A stretch of 64,000 nt of DNA, taken from Paenibacillus borealis (GTDB taxonomy: Bacteria > Bacillota > Bacilli > Paenibacillales > Paenibacillaceae). The first letter of the stretch is position 1, and each line of letters starts with the position of its first letter. The notes under the pieces are model-generated. The model saw only the letters and a program-made list of their open reading frames with translations, did no database searches and was not told where the DNA came from. The stretch spans positions 2,356,001 to 2,420,000 of the forward strand of contig NZ_CP009285.1 of assembly GCF_000758665.1 (NCBI RefSeq). Direction: 5' to 3'. This document shows, piece by piece, positions 29,185 through 58,765 of the stretch. Both the position numbers and the translations under genes were made by a program.

Positions 29185-29365
29185 ATATGTTGTACGAATT
29201 ACAACTTGGGTTTATGTATACCAGGGTGTTAGGGAGGAATGTTGTACAAAATACAAGAATTGACCTGCTAGAACACTTAAAAGAGGAGAATTGCTGCCTT
29301 TTATACAACATTTTTCGATTATGGAAGATAATATAAATGAAATGTTGTATTTTGAGCAGGATTTT
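29185..29365. repeat. Four-hairpin intergenic element A
   Basis: The gap from 29097 to 29465 contains four copies of a GTTGTA..TACAAC motif at steps of 52, 52 and 51 bp. They are GTTGTACGAATTACAAC at 29189, GTTGTACAAAATACAAG at 29241, a right arm ATACAAC at 29303, and a left arm GTTGTATTTTGAGC at 29344. The first two can form short stems with 5-nt loops. No reading frame here is convincing. Confidence 0.7.
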
Positions 29366-29465
29366 AAGGATAAGAACTGCTGGAGCGATAGCGTACGCCT
29401 GATAGTTTGACCAGGGCACGCTATCTACAGCATCAGTTATACCGTTTCGCATGCAGCTGCACTAA

Positions 29466-29924
29466 TTAGGCAAAAGCCAGTTTCAACGCCTGCGGCTGGA
29501 ATGAACCCATAATCTTATAAGCCTTTAAATGCGGGTTGTTCATATCGTTATCGTAAATAATCATATGCTGCTTGCCCTTCAGAATGATATCAAACCGCTG
29601 CTTCCGGTCAGCCTGTACGATGGTAATATAATAGCTGTATTTGTTGTCGGTGCTTACATTCCGTGCTGATTTCATTAATTTGACGTCAGCGAAATCCTCA
29701 CATATTTGTTTGATAGCCTCAGGTTCAGTAACCACAATATCCTTCTGTTCGCCGGGAACAGAGGACAGACGGGTAATTTCAAGTGAGGCGATGTCTTCCA
29801 GCCGGATGGTTCTGGCCACCACTTTTTTGAATGAAGTGTAGCGGTTGGCTGTATAGGTCATTAGAGAAACACCTGCTGCTGTCAGGATTGCGCCGGCAAG
29901 CATATATTTTTTGCTTTTTTCCAT
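29466..29924 (-). CDS. Small membrane-anchored protein of unknown function
   Basis: The protein has 152 residues from the ATG at 29924, placed 9 nt after AGGAGG (29934-29939). One N-terminal transmembrane segment (about 7-25, YMLAGAILTAAGVSLMTY) follows KSKK. It leaves a mixed alpha/beta domain outside or, less likely, inside the cell. Phrases include 'IASLEITRLSSVPGEQKDIVV', 'EDFADVKLMKSARN' and 'YYITIVQADRKQRFDIIL'. I recognise no family. It lies opposite to both neighbours. Confidence 0.65.
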   Translation of the reverse strand: MEKSKKYMLAGAILTAAGVSLMTYTANRYTSFKKVVARTIRLEDIASLEITRLSSVPGEQKDIVVTEPEAIKQICEDFADVKLMKSARNVSTDNKYSYYITIVQADRKQRFDIILKGKQHMIIYDNDMNNPHLKAYKIMGSFQPQALKLAFA

Positions 29925-30103
29925 GGTTCTGTTCCTCCTAGTCATACGATTGTGTAAGTCCCAATTATAAATCTATAGACTCGTCCACGCAAATTCAGTT
30001 ACTTTAATTACTAAACGGTTTCTTTAATTACGTAAGCTTCCAAGTACGGCCTGTTTGCCGCTATGATTATTGTGAAAATATGCACAAGGGGGCAAGCGTT
30101 ACT

Positions 30104-31663
30104 ATGAAAAAGAGATTAGCAGCGACTCTTATACTCGTTTTTTCCGTCATGCTGGTTATCGCAGGCTGCGGTAACAGCAATGCTAACGGAAGTGTCAATG
30201 AGAGCCAGGGCAAGAACAGCGCAACCACAGAACCTGCAGCAACCACTGCACCTAAAGAGACAGCTGAAGCCGTATCGGGAGCGTCCGAAGCGAGCTATAC
30301 ACCGTACGATCAGTTAAAAGATAAATATGACATCATCATTGTCGGTGCGGGCGGGGCAGGAATGTCTGCGGCGCTGGAAGCCAAAGCAAACGGCATGAAC
30401 CCGGTCGTTCTGGAGAAAATGCCGGTTGCCGGCGGTAACACCACCAAATCCTCCTCGGGTATGAACGCTTCGCAGACGAAGTTCCAGAAGGAGCAGGGCA
30501 TCGAGGACACCAATGATCTGTTCTATGAAGAGACTATGGCAGGCGGCCATGATACGAACAACAAGGAGCTGCTCCGCTTTTTCGTGGACAATTCCGCAAG
30601 TGCCATTGACTGGCTGGATTCAATCGGAATCCGTTTGAATAATATTACGATCACCGGCGGAATGAAAGAGAAGCGTACCCACCGTCCGGAAGACGGCTCT
30701 GCAGTCGGACAATACCTGGTTGCAGGACTCGTGAGAAACGTTCAGGAGCAAGGGATTCCCCTCTTCGTAAATGCGGATGTGAAGGAACTTACCGTACAGG
30801 ATGGTAAGGTCAACGGCGTTAAGGTACTGTTCAACCAGGCCGATGAGAAAACAATCACCGGATCAGCAGTAATCGTAACAACCGGCGGCTTCGGGGCTAA
30901 TATGGAGATGATTACCGAAGTCAGACCTGATCTCGAAGGTTATGTGACCACGAACCAGATCGGCAGCACCGGCGACGGCATCCGGATGATTGAACAGGTT
31001 GGCGGCACAACGGTAGATCTGGATCAGATTCAGGTGCACCCGACAGTACAGCAGGAGAAATCCTACCTGATCGGTGAAGCAGTCCGGGGCGAAGGGGCTA
31101 TCCTCGTATCCAGCGAGGGCAAACGTTTCGGCAACGAAATGGATACCCGTGATAAAGTTACAGCTTCCATCAATACCCTTCCGGAGAAATCAGCGTATCT
31201 GGTGTTTGATTCCGGCGTGAAATCCCGCGTCAAAGCGGTGGACCAGTACATCAAGATGGGTGTGGTCTTAACAGCAGATACCACCCGGGCACTGGCTGAA
31301 CAAATGAACGTTCCGGCGGATCAGCTGAAGACGACAGTGGATACCTGGAACAGCGCAGTGAAGAATAAGTCGGATGCGGAATTCGGCAGAACTACAGGCA
31401 TGGACAATGATCTGTCCGGCGCTCCGTATTATGCCATTCAAATCGGCCCGGGAATTCACTACACCATGGGCGGTGTGGTTATTAACACCAATACAGAAGT
31501 CTTGAATAAAGACGGCAACGCGATTACAGGACTTTTTGCAGCAGGTGAAGTAGTCGGCGGATTACATGGCCAGAACCGTATCGGCGGTAACTCTGTAGCT
31601 GAGATTATTATCTTTGGACGCCAGGCAGGGATCAAATCTGCAGAATTTGTAAAAGCACAATAA
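30104..31663 (+). CDS. Lipoprotein FAD-dependent fumarate-reductase-like flavoprotein
   Basis: The protein has 519 residues from the ATG at 30104, after AAGGGGG. The lipobox VIAGC (about residue 23) and a Ser/Asn/Thr/Ala linker (about 25-70) place it outside the membrane. The FAD site is DIIIVGAGGAGMSAALEA, with GGNTTKSSSGMNAS after it. Residues of the flavocytochrome-c/urocanate-reductase active site are visible in EAVRGEGAILV, in GIHYTMGG and in NRIGGNSVAE. It lacks both a haem domain and an FMN-binding domain on the same chain, so an external donor is needed. Fumarate, urocanate or another enoate could be the acceptor. The CitA/DcuS-like pair upstream fits fumarate; this is inference. Confidence 0.85.
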   Translation: MKKRLAATLILVFSVMLVIAGCGNSNANGSVNESQGKNSATTEPAATTAPKETAEAVSGASEASYTPYDQLKDKYDIIIVGAGGAGMSAALEAKANGMNPVVLEKMPVAGGNTTKSSSGMNASQTKFQKEQGIEDTNDLFYEETMAGGHDTNNKELLRFFVDNSASAIDWLDSIGIRLNNITITGGMKEKRTHRPEDGSAVGQYLVAGLVRNVQEQGIPLFVNADVKELTVQDGKVNGVKVLFNQADEKTITGSAVIVTTGGFGANMEMITEVRPDLEGYVTTNQIGSTGDGIRMIEQVGGTTVDLDQIQVHPTVQQEKSYLIGEAVRGEGAILVSSEGKRFGNEMDTRDKVTASINTLPEKSAYLVFDSGVKSRVKAVDQYIKMGVVLTADTTRALAEQMNVPADQLKTTVDTWNSAVKNKSDAEFGRTTGMDNDLSGAPYYAIQIGPGIHYTMGGVVINTNTEVLNKDGNAITGLFAAGEVVGGLHGQNRIGGNSVAEIIIFGRQAGIKSAEFVKAQ

Positions 31664-31698
31664 GCCATTATTCCATAACTCATTGTTATCTTGATAAA

Positions 31699-31739
31699 GG
31701 GATGCCCCGAAGCTGCTGGCTTTGGCGGCATCCCTCTTT
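31699..31739 (+). terminator. Hairpin after the flavoprotein gene
   Basis: GGGATGCC (31699-31706) pairs with GGCATCCC (31727-31734), followed by TCTTT. It lies between convergent genes and may serve both. Confidence 0.7.
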
Positions 31740-31775
31740 GCATATAATCTCTGCTTCTCCGGTATCCTCTGCCGC

Positions 31776-33014
31776 TTACGCCTGAATTGCCGGAGACGGT
31801 GCAGGCTTGGCCGTCCGGGTCAGTGAGAACAGCTCCAGCTCCGGGCGCTGTTTGCCGGCAAGAGTATCTGCCAGCAGCTCGGCGGCGATCATGCTGTAGA
31901 CGGTTCCGTTGCCCCCATAGCCTTCAATGAAGTAGCAGTGCGGGTACTCCGGATGCGGCCCCATATAAGGCAAGCCGTCACGGGTAGAGCCGAAGACTGC
32001 TCCCCAAGAGTATTCAGCCTCTATTCCCTGAAGTTCCGGGAACAGGGCCACAAGCTCCTCCAGCAGCCGCTGGCACTGCGAGAGCACACGGATATCGCGC
32101 CGCTCGGGACTGGTAAGCTGCTCGTCCTTGCCGCCGGCAATAATCCGTCCGTCCGGCGTGGTGCGGAAATACAGATAAGGCCGCGCGGTTTCCCAGAGCA
32201 GACTTTGTTCATGCCATTTGGGAAAGCTCGTCAGGGGCTTGGTCATAATGGCATATGTATTGATCAGCTCCGCCCCCCGGTCCTTCTTCATCTCCTGGGT
32301 TTCATACCCCATAGCAAACACAACATTCTTCGCATAGATCCGCCCGTTCGCCGTATGGCAGACCACGCCGTCAGCACTATATTCGTAATTAAGGGCTTCA
32401 GTATGCTCATAGACCCGGACTCCGCCGGAGTAGGCTTTATCAATCAGGCTGTGCACGGTCCGGAACGGATTGGTCTCTGCATCTCCCCGGGAGAAGAGTG
32501 CGGCTGGTTTGGAGAAGGAATAATGCGAACGTACTTTATCCTCTTCCCAGAACTCGGAATCAAACCCGTGCCGGATCAGGTTCTCATGCTCCTGCTTAAG
32601 CGCGGGCACATCCTCAGGTACGCTGGCATACAGCAGACTGCTGCGTTCTATAATCTGCGGATCAATCTCCAGTTTGGCCGGCAGGTCGAGAATCGCGCGG
32701 ACGCCCTGCTGGCACAGCTTATAGAACAGCACGCCGTTCTCTTCCCCGAAGGTATTTATGCAGGCGGTCAGCGACTTGTCATTTGCAATTTGCAGCAGTC
32801 CCGTATTGGCGTGGGAGCTTCCGCTGCCTACCGCCCTTTTGTCGATGAGTACGGTATCGGCTCCGCTGAGGGACATGCGGTAGGACATCATCGCCCCGCC
32901 CATACCGCCGCCTACAATCAGACAGTCGCAGGTGATATCCCCATCCAGCACCGGATAAACCGGCGGATGAAGCAGTGTATTTTCCCAGGGCAGCTGCCCG
33001 CTGATGAGTTTCAT
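31776..33014 (-). CDS. FAD-dependent amine/amino-acid oxidoreductase (DAO family)
   Basis: The protein has 412 residues from the ATG at 33014, 10 nt after AAGGAG. The N-terminal FAD site is DCLIVGGGMGGAMMSYRMSLSGADTVLID. The HANTGLLQ stretch and the C-terminal 'WGAVFGSTRDGLPYMGPHPEYPHCYFIEGYGGNGTVYSMIAAELLAD' are typical of the D-amino-acid oxidase/PuuB group. It probably oxidises a secondary amine or an amino acid to an imine. There is no signal peptide, so it is cytoplasmic. It is not in an operon. Substrate unknown. Confidence 0.85.
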   Translation of the reverse strand: MKLISGQLPWENTLLHPPVYPVLDGDITCDCLIVGGGMGGAMMSYRMSLSGADTVLIDKRAVGSGSSHANTGLLQIANDKSLTACINTFGEENGVLFYKLCQQGVRAILDLPAKLEIDPQIIERSSLLYASVPEDVPALKQEHENLIRHGFDSEFWEEDKVRSHYSFSKPAALFSRGDAETNPFRTVHSLIDKAYSGGVRVYEHTEALNYEYSADGVVCHTANGRIYAKNVVFAMGYETQEMKKDRGAELINTYAIMTKPLTSFPKWHEQSLLWETARPYLYFRTTPDGRIIAGGKDEQLTSPERRDIRVLSQCQRLLEELVALFPELQGIEAEYSWGAVFGSTRDGLPYMGPHPEYPHCYFIEGYGGNGTVYSMIAAELLADTLAGKQRPELELFSLTRTAKPAPSPAIQA

Positions 33015-33201
33015 GGTTTGGTCGCTCCTTTTTATAATCAAGGTAAGGTATTGTTTGCAATTTTACGGCCGCTCATGCGCTGATTTTATGGTTTGAATCC
33101 CAATGTTGCAGAAGCGTCTTTGCGCTTTTTGGCACATAAAGAACTTCACTCTGCGGCATACTAAGGAACGCTTGAACATCCAGAAGGAGGGAATACCGAA
33201 C

Positions 33202-33438
33202 ATGCAATCCAACCAAATGCAGGCACTTAGCGGAAAAGAACTGGAATACATCGCTGATTCCATTTCCAACGAAGATTTGCTGATTAAGCAGCTGGCTGCT
33301 ACAGCCGGGAACACCCAGAACTCCACAGTGCACGGAATCTGTGTACAGCAAATTCAAAGTCATACCCACCATATGGATATGCTTGTACAGCTGCTGCATC
33401 AGCACCAGCAATATGCACCAACTCAGCCGCAGCAATAG
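33202..33438 (+). CDS. Small coat-associated protein (probable)
   Basis: The protein has 78 residues; the ATG at 33202 follows GAAGGAGGG. The N-terminal part (KELEYIADSISNEDLLIKQLAATA) resembles the helical region of CotF/YhcQ-type coat proteins. The C-terminal third is rich in His and Gln (HTHHMDM, LLHQHQQ). It lies 63 bp before a CotF-like gene, in the same direction. The coat assignment rests mainly on this neighbour. Confidence 0.65.
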   Translation: MQSNQMQALSGKELEYIADSISNEDLLIKQLAATAGNTQNSTVHGICVQQIQSHTHHMDMLVQLLHQHQQYAPTQPQQ

Positions 33439-33501
33439 TTGATGAGCGCAGGAGGCAGAAGCTCACGAATTTGTTTCCACAAACTTTAAGGAGGTTTTAT
33501 T

Positions 33502-33897
33502 GTGTACGCACAAAATGGAACGCCATTCATGGCGGATGAGGATTTATTAAACACTGTGCTGGCCGATTTGAAGCGGACGGTACGGGAATATACAACAGCA
33601 GCCACAGAGTCGAATTGTCCGGCGGTACGCCGTGTGTTCAACGATTTGACGATGGACACGCTTAGAATTCAGGGTGAGCTGTATACCCAAATGTCGCAGC
33701 TTAACATGTACACGCCTCCGGGCAAAGCCCTGCGCCAGGATATCGACAAGCAGATTCAGACTGCCCAGCAGACCCAGCAGAAATGCCAGCAGTTCGTGCG
33801 TGAGAAAACTGGCGGAGCCGGTGCTTATAATCAGGCTTCCAATGTTCCGCTGCATCAGCCCAATGTGCAGCATAATAACGGTTCCTACTATATGTAA
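33502..33897 (+). CDS. CotF-family spore coat protein
   Basis: The protein has 131 residues with a GTG start behind TTAAGGAGG. Sections 'FMADEDLLNTVLADLKRTVREYTTAATES' and 'ALRQDIDKQIQTAQQTQQKCQQF' form the helical core of the CotF family, followed by a Gln/Asn-rich tail ending in YYM. Such proteins are laid down in the spore coat by the mother cell. Expression by a sporulation sigma factor is expected, but I did not find a clear sigma-E or sigma-K promoter. Confidence 0.85.
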   Translation: MYAQNGTPFMADEDLLNTVLADLKRTVREYTTAATESNCPAVRRVFNDLTMDTLRIQGELYTQMSQLNMYTPPGKALRQDIDKQIQTAQQTQQKCQQFVREKTGGAGAYNQASNVPLHQPNVQHNNGSYYM

Positions 33898-33972
33898 CCC
33901 TCACCCGGGGCGGATGAAGCATAGGACTGCCCGTCCGCTGGTGTGGAGAAACACAAATAAAAAGATCCATTT

Positions 33973-33998
33973 AACCCCGCCCCGGCGGGGTTATTTTG
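33973..33998 (+). terminator. Terminator after the coat genes
   Basis: AACCCCGCC and GGCGGGGTT are nearly adjacent (33973-33992), followed by ATTTTG. Confidence 0.8.
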
Positions 33999-34102
33999 TT
34001 TGCAGAACTGTCATTTTCGTGTCATATTAATACTAAACTCTTTTCGCAGGCGCTTTGCCCTGAAGCAGGGTACCGGTCTGGCGAACTATCCGGAGGGAAG
34101 GC

Positions 34103-34603
34103 ATGAAGGAAATGAATGAATTAAAGAGGAAAGTGCTGGAACTGCTTAAGGAGGACGCGCGAAGCTCGACAGCGCTTATGGCGACCCTGCTTGGTGCGGA
34201 AGAAGAAAATGTCAAAACTGTGATTGCACAAATGGAACAGGACCATGTCATCGTTAAATATGCGACTGTGGTCAATTGGGATAAGGTGGACGACGAACGG
34301 GTGACGGCGCTGATCGAGGTTCAGATTACACCGGAACGCGGCCGGGGCTTCGAAGGCATTGCGGAGCGGATCTATCTGTATCCGCAAGTCAAATCCGTCT
34401 ATCTGATGTCCGGTGCCTACGATTTACTGGTCGAAGTGGAAGGCCGCAATCTGCGGGAAGTTGCTAATTTCGTCTCCGAGAAGCTGTCGCCGATTGATGC
34501 GGTGCTCTCTACCAAAACTAACTTTACGCTCAAAAAATACAAACAGGACGGTATCATCTTTGAAGAGCATGAAGAAGACAACCGTCTGATGATATCTCCG
34601 TGA
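34103..34603 (+). CDS. alaR: Lrp/AsnC-family regulator, AlaR-like
   Basis: The protein has 166 residues with ribosome site GGAGGGAAGG. The N-terminal helix-turn-helix (about 5-60, RSSTALMATLLGAEEENVKTVIAQMEQD) is followed by a RAM ligand-binding domain (about 70-150, VTALIEVQITPERGRGF, SVYLMSGAYDLLVEVEG). It is followed after 13 bp by an aminotransferase gene. The pair matches AlaR-AlaT of B. subtilis in size and order, in which the regulator controls alanine synthesis. The symbol is given on that basis. Confidence 0.8.
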   Translation: MKEMNELKRKVLELLKEDARSSTALMATLLGAEEENVKTVIAQMEQDHVIVKYATVVNWDKVDDERVTALIEVQITPERGRGFEGIAERIYLYPQVKSVYLMSGAYDLLVEVEGRNLREVANFVSEKLSPIDAVLSTKTNFTLKKYKQDGIIFEEHEEDNRLMISP

Positions 34604-34616
34604 AGGATGTAATGTC

Positions 34617-35807
34617 ATGATTACGAAGTCGATGAATTCCTATTTGGCCCCGCTGGTCCAGCAGATTCAGCCATCGGGCATCCGTAAGTTTTTTGATCTG
34701 GCTGCTGGCAGCAAGGATATTATTTCACTCGGTGTCGGCGAACCGGATTTCAAGACTCCCTGGCATGTCAGGGAAGCCTGCGTCTACTCGCTGGAACGCG
34801 GTTTCACCGGCTATACCTCAAATGCCGGCATGCCGGAGCTTCGTGAGGGCATTGCCGAATATCTGCAGACCCGCTTCGCGGTGGAATACAATCCGGCGAA
34901 TCAGATTATCGCCACCGTCGGCGGCAGTGAGGCGATTGATCTGGCGCTTCGCGCCTTGATCTCGCCGGGAGACGAGATTCTGATTCCTGAGCCTTGTTAT
35001 ATTTCGTATTCACCAATAACAGCAATTGGCGGCGGGATTCCGGTCGGCATTGAGACCTTCGGAGAGAATAACTTCAAGCTTACCGCGTCTGATCTGGAAG
35101 CCAAGATTACTCCGCGCTCCAAAATTCTCATTCTCTGTTATCCGAGCAATCCGACTGGCGCAATTATGAGCCGCGAGGATTGGGAGCCCATTGCCAAAGT
35201 GGTAGAGAAACATGATCTTATTGTAATTTCGGATGAGATCTATGCTGAACTGACGTATGGAAGCAATCATGTAAGCTTTGCCTCCCTTCCGGGTATGCTC
35301 GACCGGACCATTCTGGTCAGCGGATTCTCCAAGGCCTTCGCCATGACCGGCTGGCGCATGGGCTACGCCTGCGGCCATCCCGATCTGATCTCCGCGATGC
35401 TGAAGATTCACCAGTATACGGTGATGTGTGCACCTTCGATGGGGCAGGTGGCTGCACTTGAAGCGTTGACGAATGGAATGGAAGAGAAGGACCGGATGGC
35501 GGATTCCTATAATCAGCGGCGCCGGCTGATCGTCAAAGGGCTGCGCGATGCCGGGCTGGACTGCCATGAGCCGCAAGGTGCGTTCTATGCATTCCCGAGT
35601 ATTCAGCGCACCGGACTTACCTCAGATCAATTTGCCCAGCGTCTGCTTCTGGAATATAAGGTTGCCGCAGTTCCGGGTAGTGTCTTCGGTCTGGGCGGAG
35701 AAGGATACCTGCGCTGCTCCTATGCAACCTCGGTGTCCCAATTGAACGAAGCCGTAGAACGGATTGGGGCATTTGTCTCACAACTGGCCCGCGAGCGGAC
35801 GGAGTAA
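34617..35807 (+). CDS. alaT: PLP-dependent aminotransferase, AlaT-like
   Basis: The protein has 396 residues, class I/II fold. The PLP-binding lysine is Lys239 in SGFSKAFAMTGWRMGY. Other family marks are YTSNAGMPELREGIAEYL near the N-terminus, 'TVGGSEAIDLALRALI', 'LCYPSNPTGAIM' and the C-terminal Arg in 'YLRCSYATS'. It likely transfers amino groups between alanine or aromatic amino acids and 2-oxoglutarate. It is probably co-transcribed with the Lrp-type regulator. Aspartate or aromatic substrates cannot be excluded. Confidence 0.85.
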   Translation: MITKSMNSYLAPLVQQIQPSGIRKFFDLAAGSKDIISLGVGEPDFKTPWHVREACVYSLERGFTGYTSNAGMPELREGIAEYLQTRFAVEYNPANQIIATVGGSEAIDLALRALISPGDEILIPEPCYISYSPITAIGGGIPVGIETFGENNFKLTASDLEAKITPRSKILILCYPSNPTGAIMSREDWEPIAKVVEKHDLIVISDEIYAELTYGSNHVSFASLPGMLDRTILVSGFSKAFAMTGWRMGYACGHPDLISAMLKIHQYTVMCAPSMGQVAALEALTNGMEEKDRMADSYNQRRRLIVKGLRDAGLDCHEPQGAFYAFPSIQRTGLTSDQFAQRLLLEYKVAAVPGSVFGLGGEGYLRCSYATSVSQLNEAVERIGAFVSQLARERTE

Positions 35808-36000
35808 TGCACACAGAATGAAGTAAATTGAACTATAGCCTATCACCTTTCTATATGGTATTATTTTACTCTAAGGACAAGAAACACCTGTAATACACTT
35901 ACATGGAACTCTTATTCTGGAATAGGGCGCAGGGTCCGGGCAGGAAGAATTCAGTCTCAATATCCGGGGATCACGCAATAATACATTAGGAGGGATGATT

Positions 36001-36431: not shown

Positions 36432-37200
36432 CTGAATCCGCCGAAAGTGGGCGGGATGCGTGAATGAGGGGCAAAAGTGCCCCTGAATCCGCCGAAAATG
36501 ACCGGCAGGCGTGAATGAGGGGCAAAAGTGCCCCTGAATCCGCCGAAAGTGGGCGGGATGCGTGAATGAGGGGCAAAAGTGCCCCTGAATCCACCGAAAA
36601 TGGACGGGATGCGTGTATGAGGAGCAAAAGTGCCCCTGAATCCACCGAAAATGGACGGGATGCGTGAATGAGGGGCAAAAGTGCCCCTGAATCCACCGAA
36701 AATGGACGGGATACGTGAATGAGGAGCAAAAGTGCCCCTGAATCCGCCGAAAATGACCGGCAGGCGTGTATGAGGAGCAAAAGTGCCCCTGAATCCACTG
36801 AAAATGGACGGGATGCGTGAATGAGGGGCAAAAGTGCCCCTGAATCCACCGAAAATGGACGGCAGGCGTGAATGAGGAGCAAAAGTGCCCCTGAATCCGC
36901 CAAAAGTGGGCGGCAGGCGTGAATGAGGGGCAGAAGTGCCCCTGAATCCGCCGAAAGTGGGCGGGATGCGTGAATGAGGGGCAAAAGTGCCCCTGAATCC
37001 GCCGAAAATGACCGGCAGGCGTGAATGAGGAGCAAAAGTGCCCCTGAATCCACCGAAAATGGACGGGATATGTGAATGAGGAGCAAAAGTGCCCCTGAAT
37101 CCGCCGAAAGTGGGCGGCAGGAGGAAAATTAAAGGGATAAATCCCTCTGAATCCGCCGAAAGTGGGCGGCAGGAGGAAAATTAAAAGGATAAATCCCTCT
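36432..37200. repeat. Array of about 15 tandem 51-bp repeats
   Basis: The phrase CTGAATCC recurs at 36432, 36483, 36534 and onward every 51 bp to 37095. Two altered units of 52 bp follow. Each unit holds CCGCCGAAAGTGGGCGG or a variant, then GCGTGAATGAG, then a hairpin AGGGGCA-AAAG-TGCCCCT. In the last two units the hairpin becomes GGGATAAATCCC at the same place. Units adjoin without spacers. The minus-strand frame is open through the array only because 51 is a multiple of 3. The repeat is shared with 10.9-11.1 kb. From 37201 to 37444 I see no gene, only a small hairpin TCACCC-GTGA-GGGTGA with TTTT at 37357-37376. Confidence 0.9.
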
Positions 37201-37444
37201 GATTACGCCAAAAGTGTGCGGGAAGCGGGAAAGAGGAGCTCTGGCATGTGATTTCGCCGGGGACTGGCCCGGAAGTAGTCTGAGGGAAGCATTGAGATGA
37301 GAGGTAACCTTAATACTACCAAAGCTGCACAGACCGCATAAGAGCTCCAGCTTGATTCACCCGTGAGGGTGATTTTATGCTGAATGAATGAAATGATAGG
37401 CTGCATGCTATAACTTGCCGGCGGCAAAGTAGTCAACCTTTTAA

Positions 37445-37473
37445 TTTACATAAATATCCTTTCACAGTATAAT
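37445..37473 (+). promoter_or_regulatory. Promoter of the TetR gene
   Basis: TTTACA (37445-37450), a 17-bp spacer and TATAAT (37468-37473). Confidence 0.75.
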
Positions 37474-37492
37474 GAATGAACAGTCATTCATT
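37471..37492. promoter_or_regulatory. Palindromic TetR operator overlapping the -10 box
   Basis: The perfect arms AATGAATGA (37471-37479) and TCATTCATT (37484-37492) are 4 bp apart. They start in the -10 box and cover the transcription start. The TGAATGA-N4-TCATTCA core is the form bound by FadR/YsiA-type TetR proteins, so autorepression by the adjacent regulator is likely. Confidence 0.75.
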
Positions 37493-37510
37493 TTGAGGGA
37501 GATGGGAATC

Positions 37511-38245
37511 ATGGGTGATAACAGCAAGAGTGATAACAGCAAGAATGATAACAGCAAGAATGATAACAGCAAGAGTGATAATAGCAAGAGTGATAACAGC
37601 AAGAATGATAACAGCAAGAGTGATAATAGCAAGCTGCTGGAACGTAAATTCATTGAGGGCTTTGAGCAATTAGCTCCGGACAAAGCGATCCGGCAGATTA
37701 TCTATCATGCTGTAGAGGTATTCTCCAAGAAAGGCTATGCGGGAACCAAAATCAAGGATATCGCCGCCAGTGCAGGCTTCAGCCAGGGGTATGTCTATAT
37801 GTATTTCAAATCCAAAGACGATATCTTCACCAGGATCGTTGAGCTGGCTTCAGACGGAGCCGGAATGTCGGTGCAATATGCAGCAGAATTAGAGGGGAGC
37901 CCGATGGAGCGGATCACCTGGCTGACGGAGGCCTTCCTCTCACCGGACAGTATTGCCCTGCAGCACTTCCGGCTCATTCTGCTGCAGACGGCCACTTCGG
38001 AAGCCATTCCGGAGGAAGCCAAGCGTGTAGCGAAGGAGAAGATTATGAAGCCGTTCGAGCATCTCGTTCCCCTGATTATTGCCGGGCAGCAGGCGGGAGA
38101 GATTGTTCCGGGAGATCCCGTGGAAATCGCCATCGCGTATTTTTCATTCATACAAGGGCTTGGTATTGCGAGATTGCAGACCACGTCCGCTGCTCCTTTT
38201 CCATCTACAGAACTGGTTCTGCGCTTCATGAAGAGGGAGCGTTAG
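37511..38245 (+). CDS. TetR/AcrR-family regulator with a repeated N-terminal tail
   Basis: The start is taken at the ATG at 37511, 10 nt after GAGGGAG; earlier in-frame ATGs (37472, 37502) lie before or against that site and the first is inside the operator. This gives 244 residues. Residues 2-41 are eight repeats of five residues of the type (S/N)DNSK. The helix-turn-helix follows (about 58-105: AVEVFSKKGYAGTKIKDIAASAGFSQGYVYMYFKSKDDIF), then a ligand domain. It probably represses itself and the hydrolase gene 32 bp downstream. The repeated tail is not part of the TetR fold. Confidence 0.88.
   Translation: MGDNSKSDNSKNDNSKNDNSKSDNSKSDNSKNDNSKSDNSKLLERKFIEGFEQLAPDKAIRQIIYHAVEVFSKKGYAGTKIKDIAASAGFSQGYVYMYFKSKDDIFTRIVELASDGAGMSVQYAAELEGSPMERITWLTEAFLSPDSIALQHFRLILLQTATSEAIPEEAKRVAKEKIMKPFEHLVPLIIAGQQAGEIVPGDPVEIAIAYFSFIQGLGIARLQTTSAAPFPSTELVLRFMKRER
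37514..37633 (+). repeat. Eight in-frame 15-bp repeats in the TetR gene
   Basis: Eight contiguous copies of RRTGATAACAGCAAG or close variants encode the (S/N)DNSK tail. The unit is a multiple of three, so slippage would change tail length without a frameshift. Confidence 0.9.
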
Positions 38246-42845: not shown

Positions 42846-43045
42846 GTGAAATAAGTGCGAGACTGCACTTATTCTCAGCTCTTTAGTCACTCTAAGGCCA
42901 ACAAGTGGATTAAGTACAACTAATTTCAGAGGTTTGGCTGAAAAGTATCGAACGCGCTCAAATTAAGTGTTGAAAATCCAACTAATTCCTGTTAACCTGC
43001 GAATTCACGCTGAATAAATGAACAATTTCCACTTATTATAATTTT
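42846..43045. repeat. Four-hairpin intergenic element B
   Basis: The gap from 42768 to 43242 holds four related inverted motifs. Their right arms are GCACTTATT (42865), CAACTAATT (42917), CAACTAATT (42979) and CCACTTATT (43029), giving steps of 52, 62 and 50 bp. The first is a perfect 9-bp hairpin (AATAAGTGC, 6-nt loop, GCACTTATT). The third pairs AATTA-GTTG with CAAC-TAATT. The rest of the gap (43046-43242) shows no gene or terminator that I can support. Confidence 0.7.
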
Positions 43046-50640: not shown

Positions 50641-50837
50641 GCGATGCCTCCACGTTCAGGTTATATAGTTAATAATTATATTACTCAAATGACATTCTTA
50701 CAAGCATATGAACATTGCCTCACAAATAAATGAAGCTGCCTTACAAGCAAATGAACACTGCGCATCGCAGCCGCTCCAATTTTATCACAGACATGCAGAG
50801 CCTGTTCCGCTATGATGTAGGATGGATTAGCGATGTA

Positions 50838-51222
50838 ACAAGGTGCTCTTGCCGGATCAGGCAAGGGATAACAGGGAATCGGGTGCAAGTCCCGAGCGGT
50901 CCCGCCACTGTAAGGAAGAGCTGAACTTCAAGAAGTCACTTGGGGAAATCCCCGGGGAAGACGAAGGATGTAGCGCCCGTATTCCAAGCCAGGAGACCTA
51001 CCTTGATTACGCACACCACGACTCTACGCGGATAGGAGCGGTGTACGGATAGGTTAATGAGATGAGGCGATGTGCCTGCAGGACCGGAGGGAATCTTGAA
51101 GATCAGAGCCGGTTCAATGTTATGCAGACACAGCGTTGAGCGGCCATGCGGAGCAGACCGGGTGCAGAACCCCTTGTTGGCGCACGGCAGTGCTCTCTAT
51201 CGAATCATACCTGCGTACATAC
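50838..51222 (+). promoter_or_regulatory. Cobalamin (B12) riboswitch and expression platform
   Basis: Core segments of the class are present in order: GGGTGCAAGTCCC (50881-50893), CCGCCACTGTAA (50902-50913), and the B12 box AGCCAGGAGACCTACC (50987-51002). The aptamer covers about 50838-51010. A linker leads to a terminator hairpin at 51223-51251, 36 bp before cbiM. Bound adenosylcobalamin should favour termination and so shut the cobalamin operon. The gap 50641-50837 shows no gene. Confidence 0.93.
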
Positions 51223-53132: not shown

Positions 53133-53174
53133 ATTTAAGATTTTAGTGCAGGAAATCTGCTGGCTTTTTTGAAA

Positions 53175-53360
53175 TCATGCCCAAAATACAACAATTTCCC
53201 CGAGATATCGGACGCAGGCCAATATTGTTGTACAAAAGGCAGCATTTCGCCTTCTCCAGGCGGCTTCGCGGGACAATTCTTGTATTTCATACAACAATCA
53301 TCCCGAAGACCGGATTATCCAGGAATCAAAGCTGCAAAATGTACAACATTTATCCGATTT
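53175..53360. repeat. Four-hairpin intergenic element C, between cbiQ and cbiO
   Basis: TACAAC or its equivalent recurs at 53187, 53238, 53290 and 53342 (steps of 51, 52 and 52 bp). The second copy is GTTGTACAAAAGG and the third is the hairpin TTGTATTTCATACAA. The element fills most of the 254-bp gap inside the operon. Both flanking genes are on the same transcript. Confidence 0.75.
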
Positions 53361-53386
53361 GCTAAATCACATTAGAGGAGTACGCC

Positions 53387-54232
53387 ATGGACATGGAATA
53401 TAGTCTGGCTTTTGACGGGGTGGTGTTTCATTACCCGGATACGAAGGAAGCCGCGCTGCGTGAACTAACCGTCTCCATTCCCAAAGGCCGCAAAACGGCG
53501 GTGCTTGGCCACAATGGTTCGGGCAAATCCACCCTGTTCCTGCATGCTGTCGGCATTCTGCGCCCGCAGAAGGGTACGGTTCAGCAAGGAGGCAAGACAT
53601 TGTCCTATGCCAAAAAAGAGCTGGCCGCGCTGCGGCGCAGTATCGGCCTTGTATTTCAGGACCCTGAGCAGCAGCTCATATTGAGCACACCTCTGGAGGA
53701 TGTGTCCTTCGGGCTGCGGGGAACGGGGATGGACGAAGCCGCAATCGCTGAGCGCTGCCGCAGCGTCATGGAACTGCTGAACCTGACGGAGCTGAGTGAC
53801 AAACCGGTTCATCAGCTCAGCCTGGGGCAGAAAAAACGCACCGCATTCGCCGGAGTAATGGCGATGGAGCCGGAGCTGATCCTGCTGGATGAGCCGACCT
53901 CGTATCTGGATCCGTTATCCGAGCTCCAGATGCTGCAGGGTCTTGATGTTATACATGAGAAGGGCACAACCGTAGTTATGGCTACGCATGATATGAATTT
54001 GGCGTACCGCTGGGCGGACTGGATCATTGTACTGGATCAGGGCAGGTGCCGGGCTGAGGGGACGCCGGAGGAGATTTTTGCCGGGGCGGAAGAATTGCAG
54101 GCCATTGGCCTCGATCTGCCGCTGCTGGCTGACTTATGGCACAGCCTGCCTGCACGGCTCACCGCCGGCCAGCCGGCCCCCCGCACGGCGGGAGATTTCA
54201 AAGCCGCACTAAACAGGCTGCTGAACAGTTAA
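53387..54232 (+). CDS. cbiO: Cobalt ECF transporter ATPase CbiO
   Basis: The protein has 281 residues with ribosome site AGAGGAG. Walker A is GHNGSGKSTLFLHAVG, the signature is LSLGQKKRTAFAGVMA, Walker B is LILLDEPTSYLD and the switch His is in ATHDMNLAYRWAD. It powers CbiMNQ. The stop at 54230-54232 is 29 bp before the next gene; a longer frame overlapping its end is not used. Confidence 0.95.
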   Translation: MDMEYSLAFDGVVFHYPDTKEAALRELTVSIPKGRKTAVLGHNGSGKSTLFLHAVGILRPQKGTVQQGGKTLSYAKKELAALRRSIGLVFQDPEQQLILSTPLEDVSFGLRGTGMDEAAIAERCRSVMELLNLTELSDKPVHQLSLGQKKRTAFAGVMAMEPELILLDEPTSYLDPLSELQMLQGLDVIHEKGTTVVMATHDMNLAYRWADWIIVLDQGRCRAEGTPEEIFAGAEELQAIGLDLPLLADLWHSLPARLTAGQPAPRTAGDFKAALNRLLNS

Positions 54233-54261
54233 TACAGGCATTCACGAACGGGGGAAGAAGG

Positions 54262-56961
54262 ATGAAGAAACAAGGAAAGCTGCTGATTATCGGCTTCGGT
54301 CCCGGAGCGCTGGAGCATATTACCGGCCGGGCGCTGGCTGCTCTCGAAGAGAGTGAGGCTGTAATCGGCTATAACACTTATGTCGACCTGATCAGACCGC
54401 TGCTGCGGCATCAGGAGATTGTCGGCACCGGTATGACTGAAGAGGTCAGCCGGGCGCAGGAGGCCGTCCGCAGAGCAGAGGAAGGACAGACGATTGCCGT
54501 AATATCCAGCGGCGATGCCGGTGTATACGGAATGGCTGGTCTCGTCTACGAGGTGCTGATTGAACGGGGCTGGAACCGGGCTGACGGTGTCGAGGTCGAG
54601 GTGATCCCCGGAATATCGGCGATTCAATCCTGTTCTTCCCTGCTGGGAGCGCCGATTATGCATGATTCCTGCACAATCAGCCTCAGCGATCATCTTACTC
54701 CATGGGAGAGCATTGCCGCACGTGTGGAAGCGGCGGGTGCTGCGGATTTCGTGATCGCCTTTTATAACCCGCGCAGCGGCAAGCGTACGCGTCAGATTGA
54801 AGAAGCGCGCAATATTCTGCTGCGTTACCGCGATCCTTCCACGCCGGTCGGCATTGTCAAAAGCGCCTACCGTGACCGTCAGCAGACGATCGTAACTACG
54901 CTGCAGGAGATGCTGGAGCATGAGATCGGCATGCTCTCTACGGTTGTCGTCGGCAATTCGGCGACAGTTGTATATGAGGGGCTTATGGTTACGCCGCGCG
55001 GATATGAGCGTAAGTACAACCTCACCGCACAGACGCAGGCGCTGAAGCCGCATGAGCGGCTGCGCACCGCGGCCGAGCCCTGGTCGCTGGCTGCGGCTGA
55101 GGCGGGACAGGTAGAAGGTGCTGCGGCGGAGAGTGTGACAGCGGCTGAGCCAGGGCGGGCAGATGGACCAGTGACACCGAGTGCAGCTGCGGGTGAAACC
55201 GGACGGGGAGAGCGATTGGCGGCGGAGAGTGAGGCTGCTGAGGCGGGACGGACGGAAGGCGCAGCAGCACTGAGCCTGGCCGCGTCTGCTCGCGTGGAGC
55301 GGCCGCGTATTCCTGCCGTCCAGCTGGCGGAACACGCTGATGATACCTTCGAGCTTGAGGTTTCTCCTGTCATCGGCAGCCGCAGATTCAGCGGTACCCA
55401 GATGAAGCTGCTGGCGGAGCTGGCAGGCGATGATGGGCAGCTGATCTATACGAAGGATGGACATTTTCTGCTGCGCAGCCATCCGGGAGACCGGGCTGAG
55501 CTGGCGGCGAGACTGACTGAGGCAGAACTGAACGTGAGCATCCCAGGAGATTATGTGAAAGTGAAAACCTGCGGGTTCTGTGAATTGCGGAGGAGCAGCG
55601 CATTAAACGCGGCGGTCCGCCTGCATACCCTGCTGCACGGGCTCGCTGTACCCAAAGAGCTGCATATCAGCGTGGCGGGGTGCGGCATGGCCTGCAGCTC
55701 GGCCGTTCTGGAAGACATCGGACTGGTCTGCTCGAAGGGAAGCTTCGAGCTATATCTGGGCGGCAAGAAGTCGGGCCGGGGAGCGCATGCCGGCACTCTG
55801 GTCCGGGAAGGTATGGACGAAGATGAGGCAGTGGCAGCTGTAGCTGCAGCAGTGGAGCATTATACTGCGCAAGGCCGGGAGAAGGAGCGGTTTCATGCTT
55901 TTTTTGAACGGATGGGCAGTATTGAAGAACAGGTGAACAGCACTGCAGGAAGTATAGATAATAATGACAGCATAGAGGGAGCACGCATGATGAGAACCGT
56001 ATTACTGGTTGGACACGGAAGCCGGATTCAAGCGGGAAATGATGAGCTGCTGCAGTTCACCAGCCAGCTTGCCGCCCGCAAGCCGGAGCTTAAGTTTGAG
56101 ACCTGCTTCATAGAGCTAGCCTCACCTTCAATCGCGGGCGGAATTGCCAAATGCGTGGAGGAAGGCGCAACGCAAATTTATATTGTGCCGATTATATTGT
56201 TCGCGGCGGGCCATTCCAAGCTGGATATTCCGATGGCAATTGATGAAGCCAAGCTGAAATATCCGGGGGTAGAGTTTGTATACGGGCGTCCGCTGGGTGT
56301 TCAGGAGCGGGCTGTTGATATTGTGCTGGACCGGATCCGTGAAGCTGAATTGCTCTCCGGTTCAGTGGGACACAGCGGTAATGAAGACAGAGCTGCGGCC
56401 TTAAGTTTACAGGAAGCCCGCACATCCGAAGTAGAGGATAAGGATACTATCGTGCTGCTTATGGGGCGCGGGGGCAGTGATCCGGATGCCAATAGTGATT
56501 TCTATAAGCTGGGCCGGCTGCTATGGGAAAGAACGCCTTACCTGAGCGTTGAGAGCTGCTTCATCGCCATCACGAAGCCGTCGCTTCCGGAAGGACTTGA
56601 ACGCTGCCTGGCACTGGGTGCGCGTAAGATTATAGTTGTGCCGTACCTGCTGTTCACCGGCGTGCTGATGAAGCAGTTTGCCGAAATGGTCTCGCGCTTC
56701 GCCGCGGAGCATCCTGAGATTGAGGTGGAAATCGGCCGCCAGCTCGGCACACATCCGCTGCTTGTAGATATGCTGACAGAGCGCATCGAGGAGACAATGG
56801 AGGGCCAGTCTTTCAGTAATTGCGATAACTGCAAGTACCGCGATGAAGCGGCATTGCACCACCATCATCACCATCACCATGGTGAGGGAGGGCATGGGCA
56901 TCACGAACATGGGCATCACGGTCGTGTGCATCACAGGCATGGGCATCATGGGCGGCAGTAA
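54262..56961 (+). CDS. cbiH60-cbiX: Fusion: cobalt-precorrin-3 C17-methyltransferase (CbiH60-like) - Fe-S domain - sirohydrochlorin cobaltochelatase CbiX
   Basis: The protein has 899 residues; the ATG at 54262 follows GGGGGAAGAAGG. Residues 1-255 are a CobJ/CbiH methyltransferase (GFGPGALEHITGRA, SSGDAGVYGMAG, VIPGISAIQSCSSLLGAP). After an Ala/Glu/Gly-rich linker (about 260-355) comes a sulfite-reductase-like domain (about 360-555) with cysteines in KTCGFCELRR and VAGCGMACSS, as in B. megaterium CbiH60. Residues from about 576 are a long-form CbiX (TVLLVGHGSRIQAGNDEL, ILFAAGHSKLDIP) with CDNCK and a His-rich tail (eight His in a row near 866). An ATG at 55987 begins the CbiX part and has its own AGGGAG. 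CbiX inserts cobalt into sirohydrochlorin; CbiH contracts the ring. Confidence 0.92.
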   Translation: MKKQGKLLIIGFGPGALEHITGRALAALEESEAVIGYNTYVDLIRPLLRHQEIVGTGMTEEVSRAQEAVRRAEEGQTIAVISSGDAGVYGMAGLVYEVLIERGWNRADGVEVEVIPGISAIQSCSSLLGAPIMHDSCTISLSDHLTPWESIAARVEAAGAADFVIAFYNPRSGKRTRQIEEARNILLRYRDPSTPVGIVKSAYRDRQQTIVTTLQEMLEHEIGMLSTVVVGNSATVVYEGLMVTPRGYERKYNLTAQTQALKPHERLRTAAEPWSLAAAEAGQVEGAAAESVTAAEPGRADGPVTPSAAAGETGRGERLAAESEAAEAGRTEGAAALSLAASARVERPRIPAVQLAEHADDTFELEVSPVIGSRRFSGTQMKLLAELAGDDGQLIYTKDGHFLLRSHPGDRAELAARLTEAELNVSIPGDYVKVKTCGFCELRRSSALNAAVRLHTLLHGLAVPKELHISVAGCGMACSSAVLEDIGLVCSKGSFELYLGGKKSGRGAHAGTLVREGMDEDEAVAAVAAAVEHYTAQGREKERFHAFFERMGSIEEQVNSTAGSIDNNDSIEGARMMRTVLLVGHGSRIQAGNDELLQFTSQLAARKPELKFETCFIELASPSIAGGIAKCVEEGATQIYIVPIILFAAGHSKLDIPMAIDEAKLKYPGVEFVYGRPLGVQERAVDIVLDRIREAELLSGSVGHSGNEDRAAALSLQEARTSEVEDKDTIVLLMGRGGSDPDANSDFYKLGRLLWERTPYLSVESCFIAITKPSLPEGLERCLALGARKIIVVPYLLFTGVLMKQFAEMVSRFAAEHPEIEVEIGRQLGTHPLLVDMLTERIEETMEGQSFSNCDNCKYRDEAALHHHHHHHHGEGGHGHHEHGHHGRVHHRHGHHGRQ

Positions 56962-57778
56962 CCGGGACAGCAGACAGCCGGGAGCCGCATCAGCCGCGAA
57001 GATCTTCATGCTGTGCGGCACTAGCGATGCCCGGGAGCTGGCACTGAACCTGTCACGTCAAGGCCTGCCGGTGCAGGCTTCTGTCGTGACGCCCAGTGCT
57101 GCGGAACGTCTAGAAGCCGCAGCTATCCGCACCCGTGTCGGCAGGCTGGACAGGACGGCCATGATCTCTCTGCTGCAGGATGGCGGCTATCGTGCCGTGG
57201 TGGACGGCAGCCATCCTTTTGCGCTGGAGGCACATGCCAATGCTATGGGAGCAGCTGCAGCGCTGGGCCTGCCCTATTTTCGCTACGAACGGCAAAGTCT
57301 TATCTATGACAGCCACCCCCGGCTGATCGTAGTGCATTCCTATGAAGAGGCTGCGCGCAAGGCCAGGGAACTGAAGGGCTCCATTATGCTGACAACCGGC
57401 GGCAAGACGCTTGAGGTGTTTGCAGAGGAGCTGCTGGGAGATCCCGATATCCGGCTGACGGTCAGACTGCTGCCCTGCCTGGAAAATATGGAGAAATGTC
57501 TAGCCCTTGGTATTGAGCAGCGGAATATTATCGCGCTTCAGGGCCCTTTTAGCAGAGAAATGAACGAGGCACTCTACCGGCAATATGGGACACAGGTGAT
57601 GATTACCAAGGAGAGCGGGGCGGAAGGCTCGGTGGATGAGAAGCTGCACGCCGCGCTGGATATGGGGCTTTACGTCATTTTGATTATGCGGCCTAGAGAT
57701 AGCGGGATGGTGTTTGACTCATTTGACGAGATTACGGAGGCCGTGAGAACTGCGCTGCAAATGAACAAGGAGGGATAA
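56948..57778 (+). CDS. cbiJ: Cobalt-precorrin-6A reductase
   Basis: The protein has about 276 residues. Core phrases KIFMLCGTSDARELALNLSRQGLPVQASVVT, AVVDGSHPFALEAHANAMGAA and ITKESGAEGSVDEKLHAA are those of the CobK/CbiJ NAD(P)H-dependent reductase. The start is uncertain. In-frame ATGs at 56894, 56909, 56939 and 56948 all lie inside the His-tail coding region of CbiX in another frame. AGGGAGGG at 56885-56892 is the only good ribosome site but is too near 56894 and too far from the rest. I chose the ATG nearest to the domain. Confidence 0.9.
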   Translation: MGGSNRDSRQPGAASAAKIFMLCGTSDARELALNLSRQGLPVQASVVTPSAAERLEAAAIRTRVGRLDRTAMISLLQDGGYRAVVDGSHPFALEAHANAMGAAAALGLPYFRYERQSLIYDSHPRLIVVHSYEEAARKARELKGSIMLTTGGKTLEVFAEELLGDPDIRLTVRLLPCLENMEKCLALGIEQRNIIALQGPFSREMNEALYRQYGTQVMITKESGAEGSVDEKLHAALDMGLYVILIMRPRDSGMVFDSFDEITEAVRTALQMNKEG

Positions 57779-57780
57779 CT

Positions 57781-58446
57781 GTGGATTTTGGTACGGATTT
57801 CAAGCCGGTGACGGTACAGCCGCAGGAAATAGAGGGTCTGAGTTTTCAGATGATTACAGAAGAGATGGGTGAACATTCCTTTAGCGAGCTGGAGTACAAA
57901 ATAGTGCAGCGGATCATTCATGCTTCTGCCGATTTTGAGCTGGGGCGCAGTCTTGTTTTTCACCCGCGGGCGATTGAGGCCGGGATCAGCGCCATTCTGC
58001 AGGGCAAGCCGATTATTGCCGATGTGCGGATGGTGGAGGCGGGCATTGCCAAGGAGCGGATTGAGCGGTACGGCGGGGAAGTCAGAGTCCATATTTCCGA
58101 TCCGGATGTGATGGAAGAAGCGAAGGCGCTGGGGACTACCCGGGCCATCATAGCTACGCGCAAAGCATGTGCACAGGCTCCGGGAGGAATCTATGTGATC
58201 GGCAACGCACCGACCGCACTGCTGGAACTGATACGTCTGGTAAAAGAAGGCGCAGCCCAGCCGGGTCTTGTCATCGGTATGCCGGTCGGTTTCGTCTCGG
58301 CAGCGGAATCCAAGGACGAGCTGTGCAAGCTCGACATTCCTTACATCACGAATGTCGGCCGCAAGGGCGGAAGCACGATCGTCGTTGCGGCCGTCAACGC
58401 ACTGAGTCTGCTGGCGGTCCGCCGGGCAGCGGGCGAATTGAAATAG
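57781..58446 (+). CDS. cbiC: Cobalt-precorrin-8 methylmutase
   Basis: The protein has 221 residues; the GTG at 57781 follows AAGGAGGGA. The catalytic His47 is in IIHASADFELG. HPRAIEAGISAILQGKPIIADVRMVEAGI and IGMPVGFVSAAESKDEL are family signatures. It moves the C11 methyl group to C12 to give cobyrinic acid. It is followed by a 459-bp gap before cbiD. Confidence 0.95.
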   Translation: MDFGTDFKPVTVQPQEIEGLSFQMITEEMGEHSFSELEYKIVQRIIHASADFELGRSLVFHPRAIEAGISAILQGKPIIADVRMVEAGIAKERIERYGGEVRVHISDPDVMEEAKALGTTRAIIATRKACAQAPGGIYVIGNAPTALLELIRLVKEGAAQPGLVIGMPVGFVSAAESKDELCKLDIPYITNVGRKGGSTIVVAAVNALSLLAVRRAAGELK

Positions 58447-58569
58447 ATCTGCGCAAGGAAAAAACGGGAACTGTGTTAACGCCGGGAAAAAAACTCAAAA
58501 CTCTATAGGAGCGGGGTTTGAACAGGATATGAACAAGTTCTGATCCATATGCTTAGGCTTATAAGGTAT

Positions 58570-58765
58570 GCTTAACTGCATTTTGTACAACTAAAACGTC
58601 TGATTTAGAACCAATTATCCGTTTAGTTGTATTTCGTACAATTAAACTACCGTTTTTGGCTTGTTCTCACCCATTGGGGCAGATTTAGTTGTACAGACTA
58701 CAGTTATAAGATGCTAGCCTGCCTTTTGGCTGATTTTAATTGCACAGTATACAACTATCACAGAT
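58570..58765. repeat. Four-hairpin intergenic element D, between cbiC and cbiD
   Basis: Right arms TACAACTAAA (58586), TACAATTAAA (58637), TACAGTTATA (58699) and TACAACTATC (58750) give steps of 51, 62 and 51 bp. The second is a good hairpin (TTTAGTTGTA, TTTCG loop, TACAATTAAA). The spacing matches that of element B (52, 62, 50). The rest of the gap 58447-58905 holds no gene that I can support. Confidence 0.75.

What the first reader, a model, noticed from the sequence alone, without database searches (positions are those of the whole stretch)
29185..58765. A family of ~200-bp 'four-hairpin' intergenic elements with a fixed 51-52-bp step
Seen directly: four loci (29.2, 42.9, 53.2 and 58.6 kb) each carry four copies of a short inverted motif (GTTGTA-5 nt-TACAAC type or an AAGT/ACTTAATT variant). 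The steps are 52/52/51, 52/62/50, 51/52/52 and 51/62/51 bp. Two loci share the same odd 62-bp middle step although most sequence differs. Copy number is four in every case. Sequence between hairpins is little conserved while spacing is. This suggests a mobile or duplicating non-coding unit, or RNA structure under selection. I do not recognise a named family.
Basis: partly seen in the sequence, partly recalled or inferred. Interest (0 to 1): 0.72.

Follow-up and report, generated by a model that had tools for sequence, protein, structure and literature searches.

The report
Helically spaced palindrome arrays in Paenibacillus
Between genes of this soil bacterium lie many short DNA arrays whose mirror-symmetric motifs differ from family to family but keep a strict spacing of about five or six turns of the DNA helix, which suggests docking sites for an unknown DNA-binding protein.

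Summary
The four window loci belong to three of at least four families (A-D) of four-dyad intergenic elements: A at 29.2 and 53.2 kb, D at 42.9 kb, B at 58.6 kb. The window also carries tandem 51-52-bp dyad arrays (E1, E2, F). With arm sequence left free, pair spacing peaks at 51-52 and 62 bp (strong in G000, weaker in two relatives). In a capped GTDB scan all 57 listed Paenibacillus-type pairs have steps 51, 52, 62 or 63; 31 pairs from other taxa scatter. Against a close species, arms change less than spacers, flanks or genes; five elements show one 1-bp indel against 45 indels in their flanks. At two more distant orthologues arms are 87% and spacers 56% identical. Covariation does not exceed shuffles, so RNA hairpins are not supported. 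A-D avoid divergent intergenic regions (2 of 56). All seven full copies of an IS3-family element sit in E-dyad loops. No RAYT-type transposase was found in this genome. Best reading: helically phased arrays of dimer-binding sites, BIME-like but not REP/RAYT members. Protein and function are unidentified.

The parts
29186..29366 (-). Type A element; four 23-bp dyads at 29186, 29238, 29290, 29341 (steps 52/52/51), between convergent genes
   Evidence: nhmmer 137 bits; array score 59/72
42850..43036 (.). Type D element; dyads at 42850, 42901, 42963, 43014 (steps 51/62/51); orthologous element in G065
   Evidence: array score 52/72; G065 orthologue
53168..53355 (+). Type A element; dyads at 53173, 53224, 53276, 53328 (steps 51/52/52); absent at the aligned site in G074, G061, G082, G065
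   Evidence: nhmmer 155 bits; array score 57/72; empty sites
58565..58766 (+). Type B element; dyads at 58572, 58623, 58685, 58736 (steps 51/62/51); matching 202-bp element at the same site in G082 and G065
   Evidence: nhmmer 201 bits (this copy was one of the three seeds); array score 62/72; orthologues
10603..10869 (+). Type F tandem array, 52 bp x 5.2 copies, one ATGTATGCG/CGAATACAAT dyad per unit
   Evidence: TRF; sequence
10911..10931 (+). E1 dyad (GAGGAGCAGAAGTGCCCCTGA) between the F and E2 arrays
   Evidence: genome position 2366911-2366931
10939..11082 (+). Type E2 tandem array, 51 bp x 2.8 copies, AAAGGGATAAATCCCTTT-type dyad
   Evidence: TRF; sequence
36432..37117 (+). Type E1 tandem array, 51 bp x 13.5 copies, GGGGCAAAAGTGCCCC and CCGCC..GGCGG dyads
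   Evidence: TRF; rows of 51
37095..37221 (+). Type E2 tandem array, 52 bp x 2.4 copies, adjoining the E1 array
   Evidence: TRF

Best explanation
The loci are arrays of dyad-symmetric DNA-binding sites. Each site is two inverted ~9-bp half-sites around a 5-bp centre, the usual geometry of a dimeric protein (inferred). Successive sites stand 51-52 bp apart (about 5 turns at 10.4 bp) or 62 bp apart (about 6 turns), so all face the same side of the helix and could be bound cooperatively as one ~200-bp nucleoprotein patch (inferred). They lie in intergenic DNA, mostly at the 3' sides of genes, which points to a role in chromosome architecture, supercoil handling or insulation rather than promoter control (inferred). 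Shown: the geometry, constraint on arms and spacing, the location, dispersal of type A, and IS targeting of E dyads. Not shown: the protein, binding, any effect on expression or topology, and how type A was copied.
For: Spacing: free-arm pair counts at 51/52/62/113 bp are 17/22/6/7 in G000 (1.264 Mb), 9/3/2/6 in G061 and 3/1/3/1 in G065 (0.4 Mb each), with a median of 0 over steps 25-130. In the search allowing steps 35-65, the 95 places I tallied in 16 genomes are all at 50 (4), 51 (23), 52 (59) or 62 (9). GTDB scan: 57 of 57 listed Paenibacillus-type pairs at 51/52/62/63, against 31 pairs from other taxa over 15 step sizes. Families with different arms share the geometry. Constraint, G000 v G115, 5 elements: arms 7/360 substitutions, spacers 47/439 (Fisher 3e-7), genes 122/2528, flanks 419/2867; indel events 1 in 899 bp inside against 45 in 2867 bp of flank (8e-5; some flank events may be counted twice) (a recount). 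G000 v G065, B and D orthologues: arms 125/144 identical, spacers 106/190 (6e-10). No covariation beyond shuffles. A-D: 56 of 56 intergenic, 2 of 56 in divergent regions v 108 of 446 background, 25 of 56 convergent v 79 of 446.
Against: No binding protein identified. Families A-C share a TTG[TC]A core, so only D, E and F differ clearly in sequence, and the wide searches saw A-C only. Pairs in related species are partly inherited, not independent. The 10-11-bp difference between steps could be one ancestral insertion rather than a physical rule. One G115 element has a 1-bp insertion in a spacer (step 52 to 53). Bias to convergent regions is also seen for parasitic repeats (pneumococcal RUP, SPRITE, IS: PMC3049150, passages). 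At 53.2 kb four relatives do without the element. Arms were chosen by their match to a consensus in G000, which slightly favours low divergence. Only five elements were compared with G115.
Confidence: 0.55

Rival explanations
1. Selfish interspersed repeats (MITE-like or BOX/RUP-like) that spread by an unknown transposase and persist where they do least harm; the dyads are the mobilising enzyme's recognition sites and have no host function.
For: Type A is a dispersed, sharply bounded repeat; the 53.2-kb copy is absent in four relatives; A and B copies lie close together in L010 and L016; convergent-region bias is typical of such repeats (PMC3049150).
Against: Arms and spacing are constrained after divergence at orthologous sites, which a dead insertion would not show. 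No clear excess of target-site duplication at 42 A copies (5.26 v 5.03, sd 0.14). Families with different arms share one geometry.
Confidence: 0.25
2. Multi-hairpin RNA elements selected as transcripts (3'-UTR structures, attenuators or sRNAs).
For: Inverted repeats; most lie at 3' sides of genes; E arrays with at least two motifs lie 3' of a same-strand gene in 34 of 35 cases.
Against: For type A, pairing and covariation are no better than shuffles for local and for long-range pairings. Unit 1 carries near-fixed A.C and unit 2 near-fixed G.T. No Rfam match over these loci. Helical steps have no obvious meaning for single-stranded RNA. B-F were not tested for covariation.
Confidence: 0.07
3. 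REP/BIME elements proper, made and moved by a REP-associated tyrosine transposase.
For: Extragenic palindromes, regular spacing, rare in divergent regions, and an IS3-family element that inserts into the palindromes, as IS1397 and ISKpn1 insert within REPs (PMC1525189). Y1_Tnp proteins do occur in 8 of the 12 array-carrying genomes tested.
Against: No Y1_Tnp (PF01797) match in G000, G074, G061 or G114, all with arrays; the other 8 genomes tested have it in 6 cases, so presence does not follow arrays. No GTAG-led palindrome in A-E.
Confidence: 0.05
4. Chance or composition artefact: AT-rich intergenic DNA yields inverted motifs and tandem duplication supplies the spacing.
For: E and F arrays are tandem repeats; unrelated taxa give scattered two-dyad matches.
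Against: Reversed and shifted-step controls are near zero; spacing holds in three species and in the listed Paenibacillus-type pairs.
Confidence: 0.01

Closest known systems
REP/BIME elements of enterobacteria and pseudomonads
   Same: Dispersed extragenic palindromes, regular arrays, an IS3-family element inserting in them; BIME-2 is reported to bind gyrase strongly (PMC2817692, passage)
   Different: No RAYT found in this genome; different palindromes; one 51/52/62-bp geometry shared by families with different arms; found here in Firmicutes
BOX, RUP and SPRITE repeats of Streptococcus pneumoniae
   Same: Short modular intergenic repeats in a Firmicute, enriched between convergent genes (PMC3049150, passages)
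   Different: BOX and RUP are reported to have TIR and TSD (same passages); here no clear TSD excess and no RNA covariation. BOX sequence models were not run here
Target palindromes of IS1397, ISKpn1 and IS621 (REP-targeting IS elements)
   Same: An IS3-family element with HTH_Tnp_1 OrfA inserted in palindrome loops in 7 of 7 full copies; IS1397 and ISKpn1 are IS3-family and insert within REPs (PMC1525189, passages; that they use the loop is recalled)
   Different: The host palindrome is the E1/E2 tandem array, not a REP
Multi-operator arrays of dimeric repressors spaced by whole helical turns (lac-type looping; recalled, plus the listing)
   Same: Inverted half-sites, integral-turn spacing
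   Different: Many copies per genome, away from promoters; no protein known

Membership tests
REP/BIME (RAYT-associated) | RAYT / Y1_Tnp transposase in the genome | tested here: not met
   0 matches to PF01797 in G000; 14 of 20 genomes tested have one, among them 8 of 12 that carry arrays
REP/BIME (RAYT-associated) | GTAG (or GTGG)-led imperfect palindrome as listed in PMC2817692 | tested here: not met
   By inspection of the A alignment, the B-D arm consensi and the E arrays. The F unit has a GTAG about 9 nt before its dyad, not examined further
REP/BIME (RAYT-associated) | Extragenic location | tested here: met
   56 of 56 A-D arrays with score >=53, by my own gene caller
REP/BIME (RAYT-associated) | Target of specific IS elements | tested here: met
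   7 of 7 full IS copies in E-dyad loops with 3-bp repeats; not looked for in A-D
REP/BIME (RAYT-associated) | Binding of gyrase, IHF or Pol I | not testable with these tools
   Needs biochemistry
MITE | Target-site duplication | tested here: inconclusive
   Mean longest shared flank word 5.26 v 5.03 (sd 0.14) for shuffled partners, 42 type A copies: +1.7 sd
MITE | Terminal inverted repeats | tested here: inconclusive
   Outer dyads face each other imperfectly in the A consensus; no separate TIR seen
Structured RNA family | Covarying base pairs | tested here: not met
   Type A only. Local hairpins: score 0.029 v 0.029 shuffled; long-range: 0.031 v 0.030
Structured RNA family | Match to an Rfam model at gathering score | tested here: not met
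   Only cobalamin riboswitch and T-box matched in the window
CRISPR array | Near-identical repeats with unique spacers | tested here: not met
   Spacers are homologous among type A copies and among E units
CRISPR array | Adjacent cas genes | not tested
   No cas search was run
BOX elements | boxA-boxB-boxC modules | not tested
   No BOX model was run

The most novel reading that the evidence does not exclude
Paenibacillaceae possess a chromosome-organising code: several dyad families with different arms and a common 5- or 6-turn geometry, each read by its own paralogue of one DNA-binding protein family, laid at gene 3' ends. The same intergenic region can hold a different family in different species (B, C or D at 58.6 kb; F+E, A-like or B at 10.6 kb), as if one functional slot were refilled by different codes.
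Probability: 0.2. Interest if true: 0.88.

Novelty: new variant of a known kind. Interest (0 to 1): 0.66.

Why it matters
Bacterial interspersed palindromes are usually defined by sequence. Here geometry is the shared feature: differing arms, same 51/52/62-bp steps, in many species of one family. That makes a clear prediction (one-faced cooperative binding at 3' sides of genes) that a pull-down and ChIP can test, and it bears on why bacterial genomes keep such repeats. The IS that targets the E dyads is a natural probe of the same sites; its five identical copies suggest recent activity (inference).

Tried and rejected
RNA hairpins in type A (local and long-range pairing): no covariation. RAYT/REP: no transposase in this genome. 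TSD at 42 A copies: +1.7 sd, inconclusive. Orientation of type A relative to replication: 13 with, 9 against, no clear bias. Terminators between gene end and array: 3 of 13 E arrays, 16 of 75 A-D gene ends, background 88 of 417; my detector is insensitive, inconclusive. Coding in 51-bp arrays (51 = 17 codons): ORFs overlap many arrays but on either strand and to varying extent; I judged them spurious without a formal test. E polarity: grouping the 69 E2 sites by hand gives 31 loci, 29 of them pointing with replication if the strand switch near 4.5-4.8 Mb is the terminus (assumed). Since about three quarters of genes do so too (binomial 0.012) and E arrays follow the upstream gene, I do not claim a replication role. 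Exceptions: L279, a single E2 site in a divergent region, was outside the count of arrays with at least two motifs; L278 holds E2 and E1 in opposite orientations; B2 275155 was the one opposite-strand case, its motif being orientation-ambiguous. The 42.9-kb array (score 52) fell below the cut-off of 53 used for the A-D location counts. Literature searches for a named Paenibacillus family or 51/52-bp repeats listed nothing relevant in this library; subscription papers are not covered. Two results of mine were mended on checking: the gap count had left out insertions (recounted), and the spacer identity of D had been taken without alignment (realigned, which raises spacer identity of B and D together from 51% to 56%). 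The comparison of the 58.6-kb element with G082 was mis-registered by my script and is not used; the BLAST identity is.
Full report
The four loci are real. Reading the sequence and scanning for GTTGTA-N5-TACAAC recovers the stated motifs and steps; only the 42.9-kb register needs a small change, to 51/62/51. The window is G000:C1:2356001-2420000 of one 8.16-Mb contig. Allowing one mismatch, the motif occurs 338 times in that genome against 25 for the reversed pattern.

They form families. From 27 non-redundant 3-kb loci plus three 400-kb blocks and the window, a profile search finds a ~186-bp family A with sharp ends; 42 long copies were aligned after dropping exact duplicates and short or weak matches. 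Family B (steps 51/62/51) is separate. A finder that leaves arm sequence free and asks only for four dyads with common arms at 50-53, then 50-53 or 61-63, then 50-53 bp also returns C (TCTATTGCA arms), D (TTAAGTGGA arms) and, unexpectedly, tandem arrays of 51-52-bp units, E1, E2 and F, two groups of which lie in this window. A, B and C share a TTG[TC]A core; D, E and F do not. In 1.264 Mb of G000 I count 37 A-D arrays at score 53 or more (24 A, 5 B, 2 C, 6 D), which would extrapolate to about 240 in the genome. Periods 51 or 52 make up 23 of the 82 tandem arrays with period 24 or more in 2.064 Mb of G000, G065 and G061.

Spacing is the shared trait. The free-arm pair spectrum has its maxima at 51-52, 62 and 113 in G000 and G061; G065 shows the same steps with small counts (51: 3, 62: 3, 52: 1, 113: 1). 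A two-dyad pattern with TTGTA/TTGYA half-sites allowing steps of 35-65 bp matched 39 of 100 genus genomes and none in the reversed control. The 95 places I tallied from that listing, which is not complete, lie at 50, 51, 52 or 62. The 57 listed pairs from Paenibacillus records and one unnamed Paenibacillaceae are at 51, 52, 62 or 63; several species contribute more than one pair. One Saccharibacillus pair is at 62. The 31 pairs from other taxa are scattered, 4 of them at 50, 51 or 62. The 10-11-bp difference between the steps is about one helical turn.

Comparison of species. In relatives whose matches run at about 77-85% identity, the A element at 53.2 kb is absent from the aligned site in all four genomes examined. 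The B element at 58.6 kb is present as a 202-bp match in G082 and G065 in otherwise unaligned intergenic DNA; in that same region, read by eye, G074 carries C-like and G061 D-like dyads. At 10.6 kb the three species carry F+E1+E2, A-like+E1, and B; at 36.3, 29.2, 19.4 and 49.6 kb arrays are present in one species and missing in another (read by eye). Against the closer G115 (P. phytohabitans, identified by the length of contig C4), five elements show 7/360 arm, 7/100 loop and 47/439 spacer substitutions; flanking intergenic DNA shows 419/2867 and genes 122/2528. One 1-bp insertion lies inside the elements, in a spacer, against 45 indel events in the flanks. Between G000 and G065 the B and D orthologues keep 125 of 144 arm letters and 106 of 190 spacer letters when aligned, with steps 51/62/51 in both (B) and 51/62/51 v 52/62/51 (D). 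Arms and spacing are therefore constrained; spacers much less.

What kind of constraint. RNA pairing does not explain it: for type A the covariation score equals shuffled values in both pairings tried, and units 1 and 2 carry near-fixed A.C and G.T positions. Two half-sites around a 5-bp centre, with centres at whole helical turns, is what cooperative dimers need; this is inference. Location: 56 of 56 A-D arrays are intergenic, 2 of 56 lie between divergent genes (background 108 of 446 intergenic regions of 200 bp or more) and 25 of 56 between convergent genes (79 of 446). E arrays with at least two motifs: 0 of 35 divergent, 34 of 35 with a same-strand gene upstream; a single-motif site, L279, does lie between divergent genes. 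Gene calls come from my own codon-usage caller. Such bias is also expected of parasites (PMC3049150 passages), so location alone does not decide.

An IS reads the same kind of site. An IS3-family element (1266 bp; OrfA with HTH_Tnp_1) has ten matches in G000: seven full-length, five of them identical, and three fragments. All seven full copies interrupt an E1 or E2 dyad in its loop with a 3-bp repeat (the 89%-identical seventh copy lies in a degenerate dyad and was read by eye). IS1397 and ISKpn1 insert within REPs (PMC1525189 passages). The RAYT transposases that define REP/BIME biology were sought as Y1_Tnp: none in G000, G074, G061 or G114, all with arrays, although 8 other array-carrying genomes do have such proteins (array counts).

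Conclusion. I read these as helically phased dyad arrays, most likely protein-docking patches at gene 3' sides, that were spread by an unknown copying process (type A) and by tandem duplication (E, F). They work like BIMEs in several respects but fail the membership tests for REP/RAYT. The protein is unknown and the function is inferred.

Noticed in passing
window 50824-51019: Cobalamin riboswitch, 114.7 bits.
   Followed up: no
window 3980-4267: T-box leader just above its gathering score, 95.7 v 93 bits.
   Followed up: no
window 37515-37633: 15-bp repeat x 7.9 (GTGATAACAGCAAGA) at the start of the ORF 37472-38245; by eye G065 lacks most of it.
   Followed up: no
L010, L016 and B3 (L102) near 44.4-44.9 kb of the block: A and B elements lie close together in one intergenic region, and five A copies share in-register similarity about 160-340 bp upstream.
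   Followed up: partly
L002, L005, L013, L020, L021: A subset of type A copies is longer, with shared sequence to about -80 and/or +330 of the core: possibly an older full-length form.
   Followed up: partly
G061 intergenic regions matching window 29.05 and 36.3 kb; L278, L279: A further repeat with GGACACCARCGCC-like words, and in G061 an IS3-like element beside it.
   Followed up: no
G074, G136, G115, G137, G135: More exact E2 cores than G000 (69): 158, 135, 100, 77 and 73.
   Followed up: no
L337 (Rossellomorea aquimaris) and L347 (Saccharibacillus kuerlensis): Two-dyad matches at steps 50 and 62 outside Paenibacillus; may mark a wider range or be chance.
   Followed up: no
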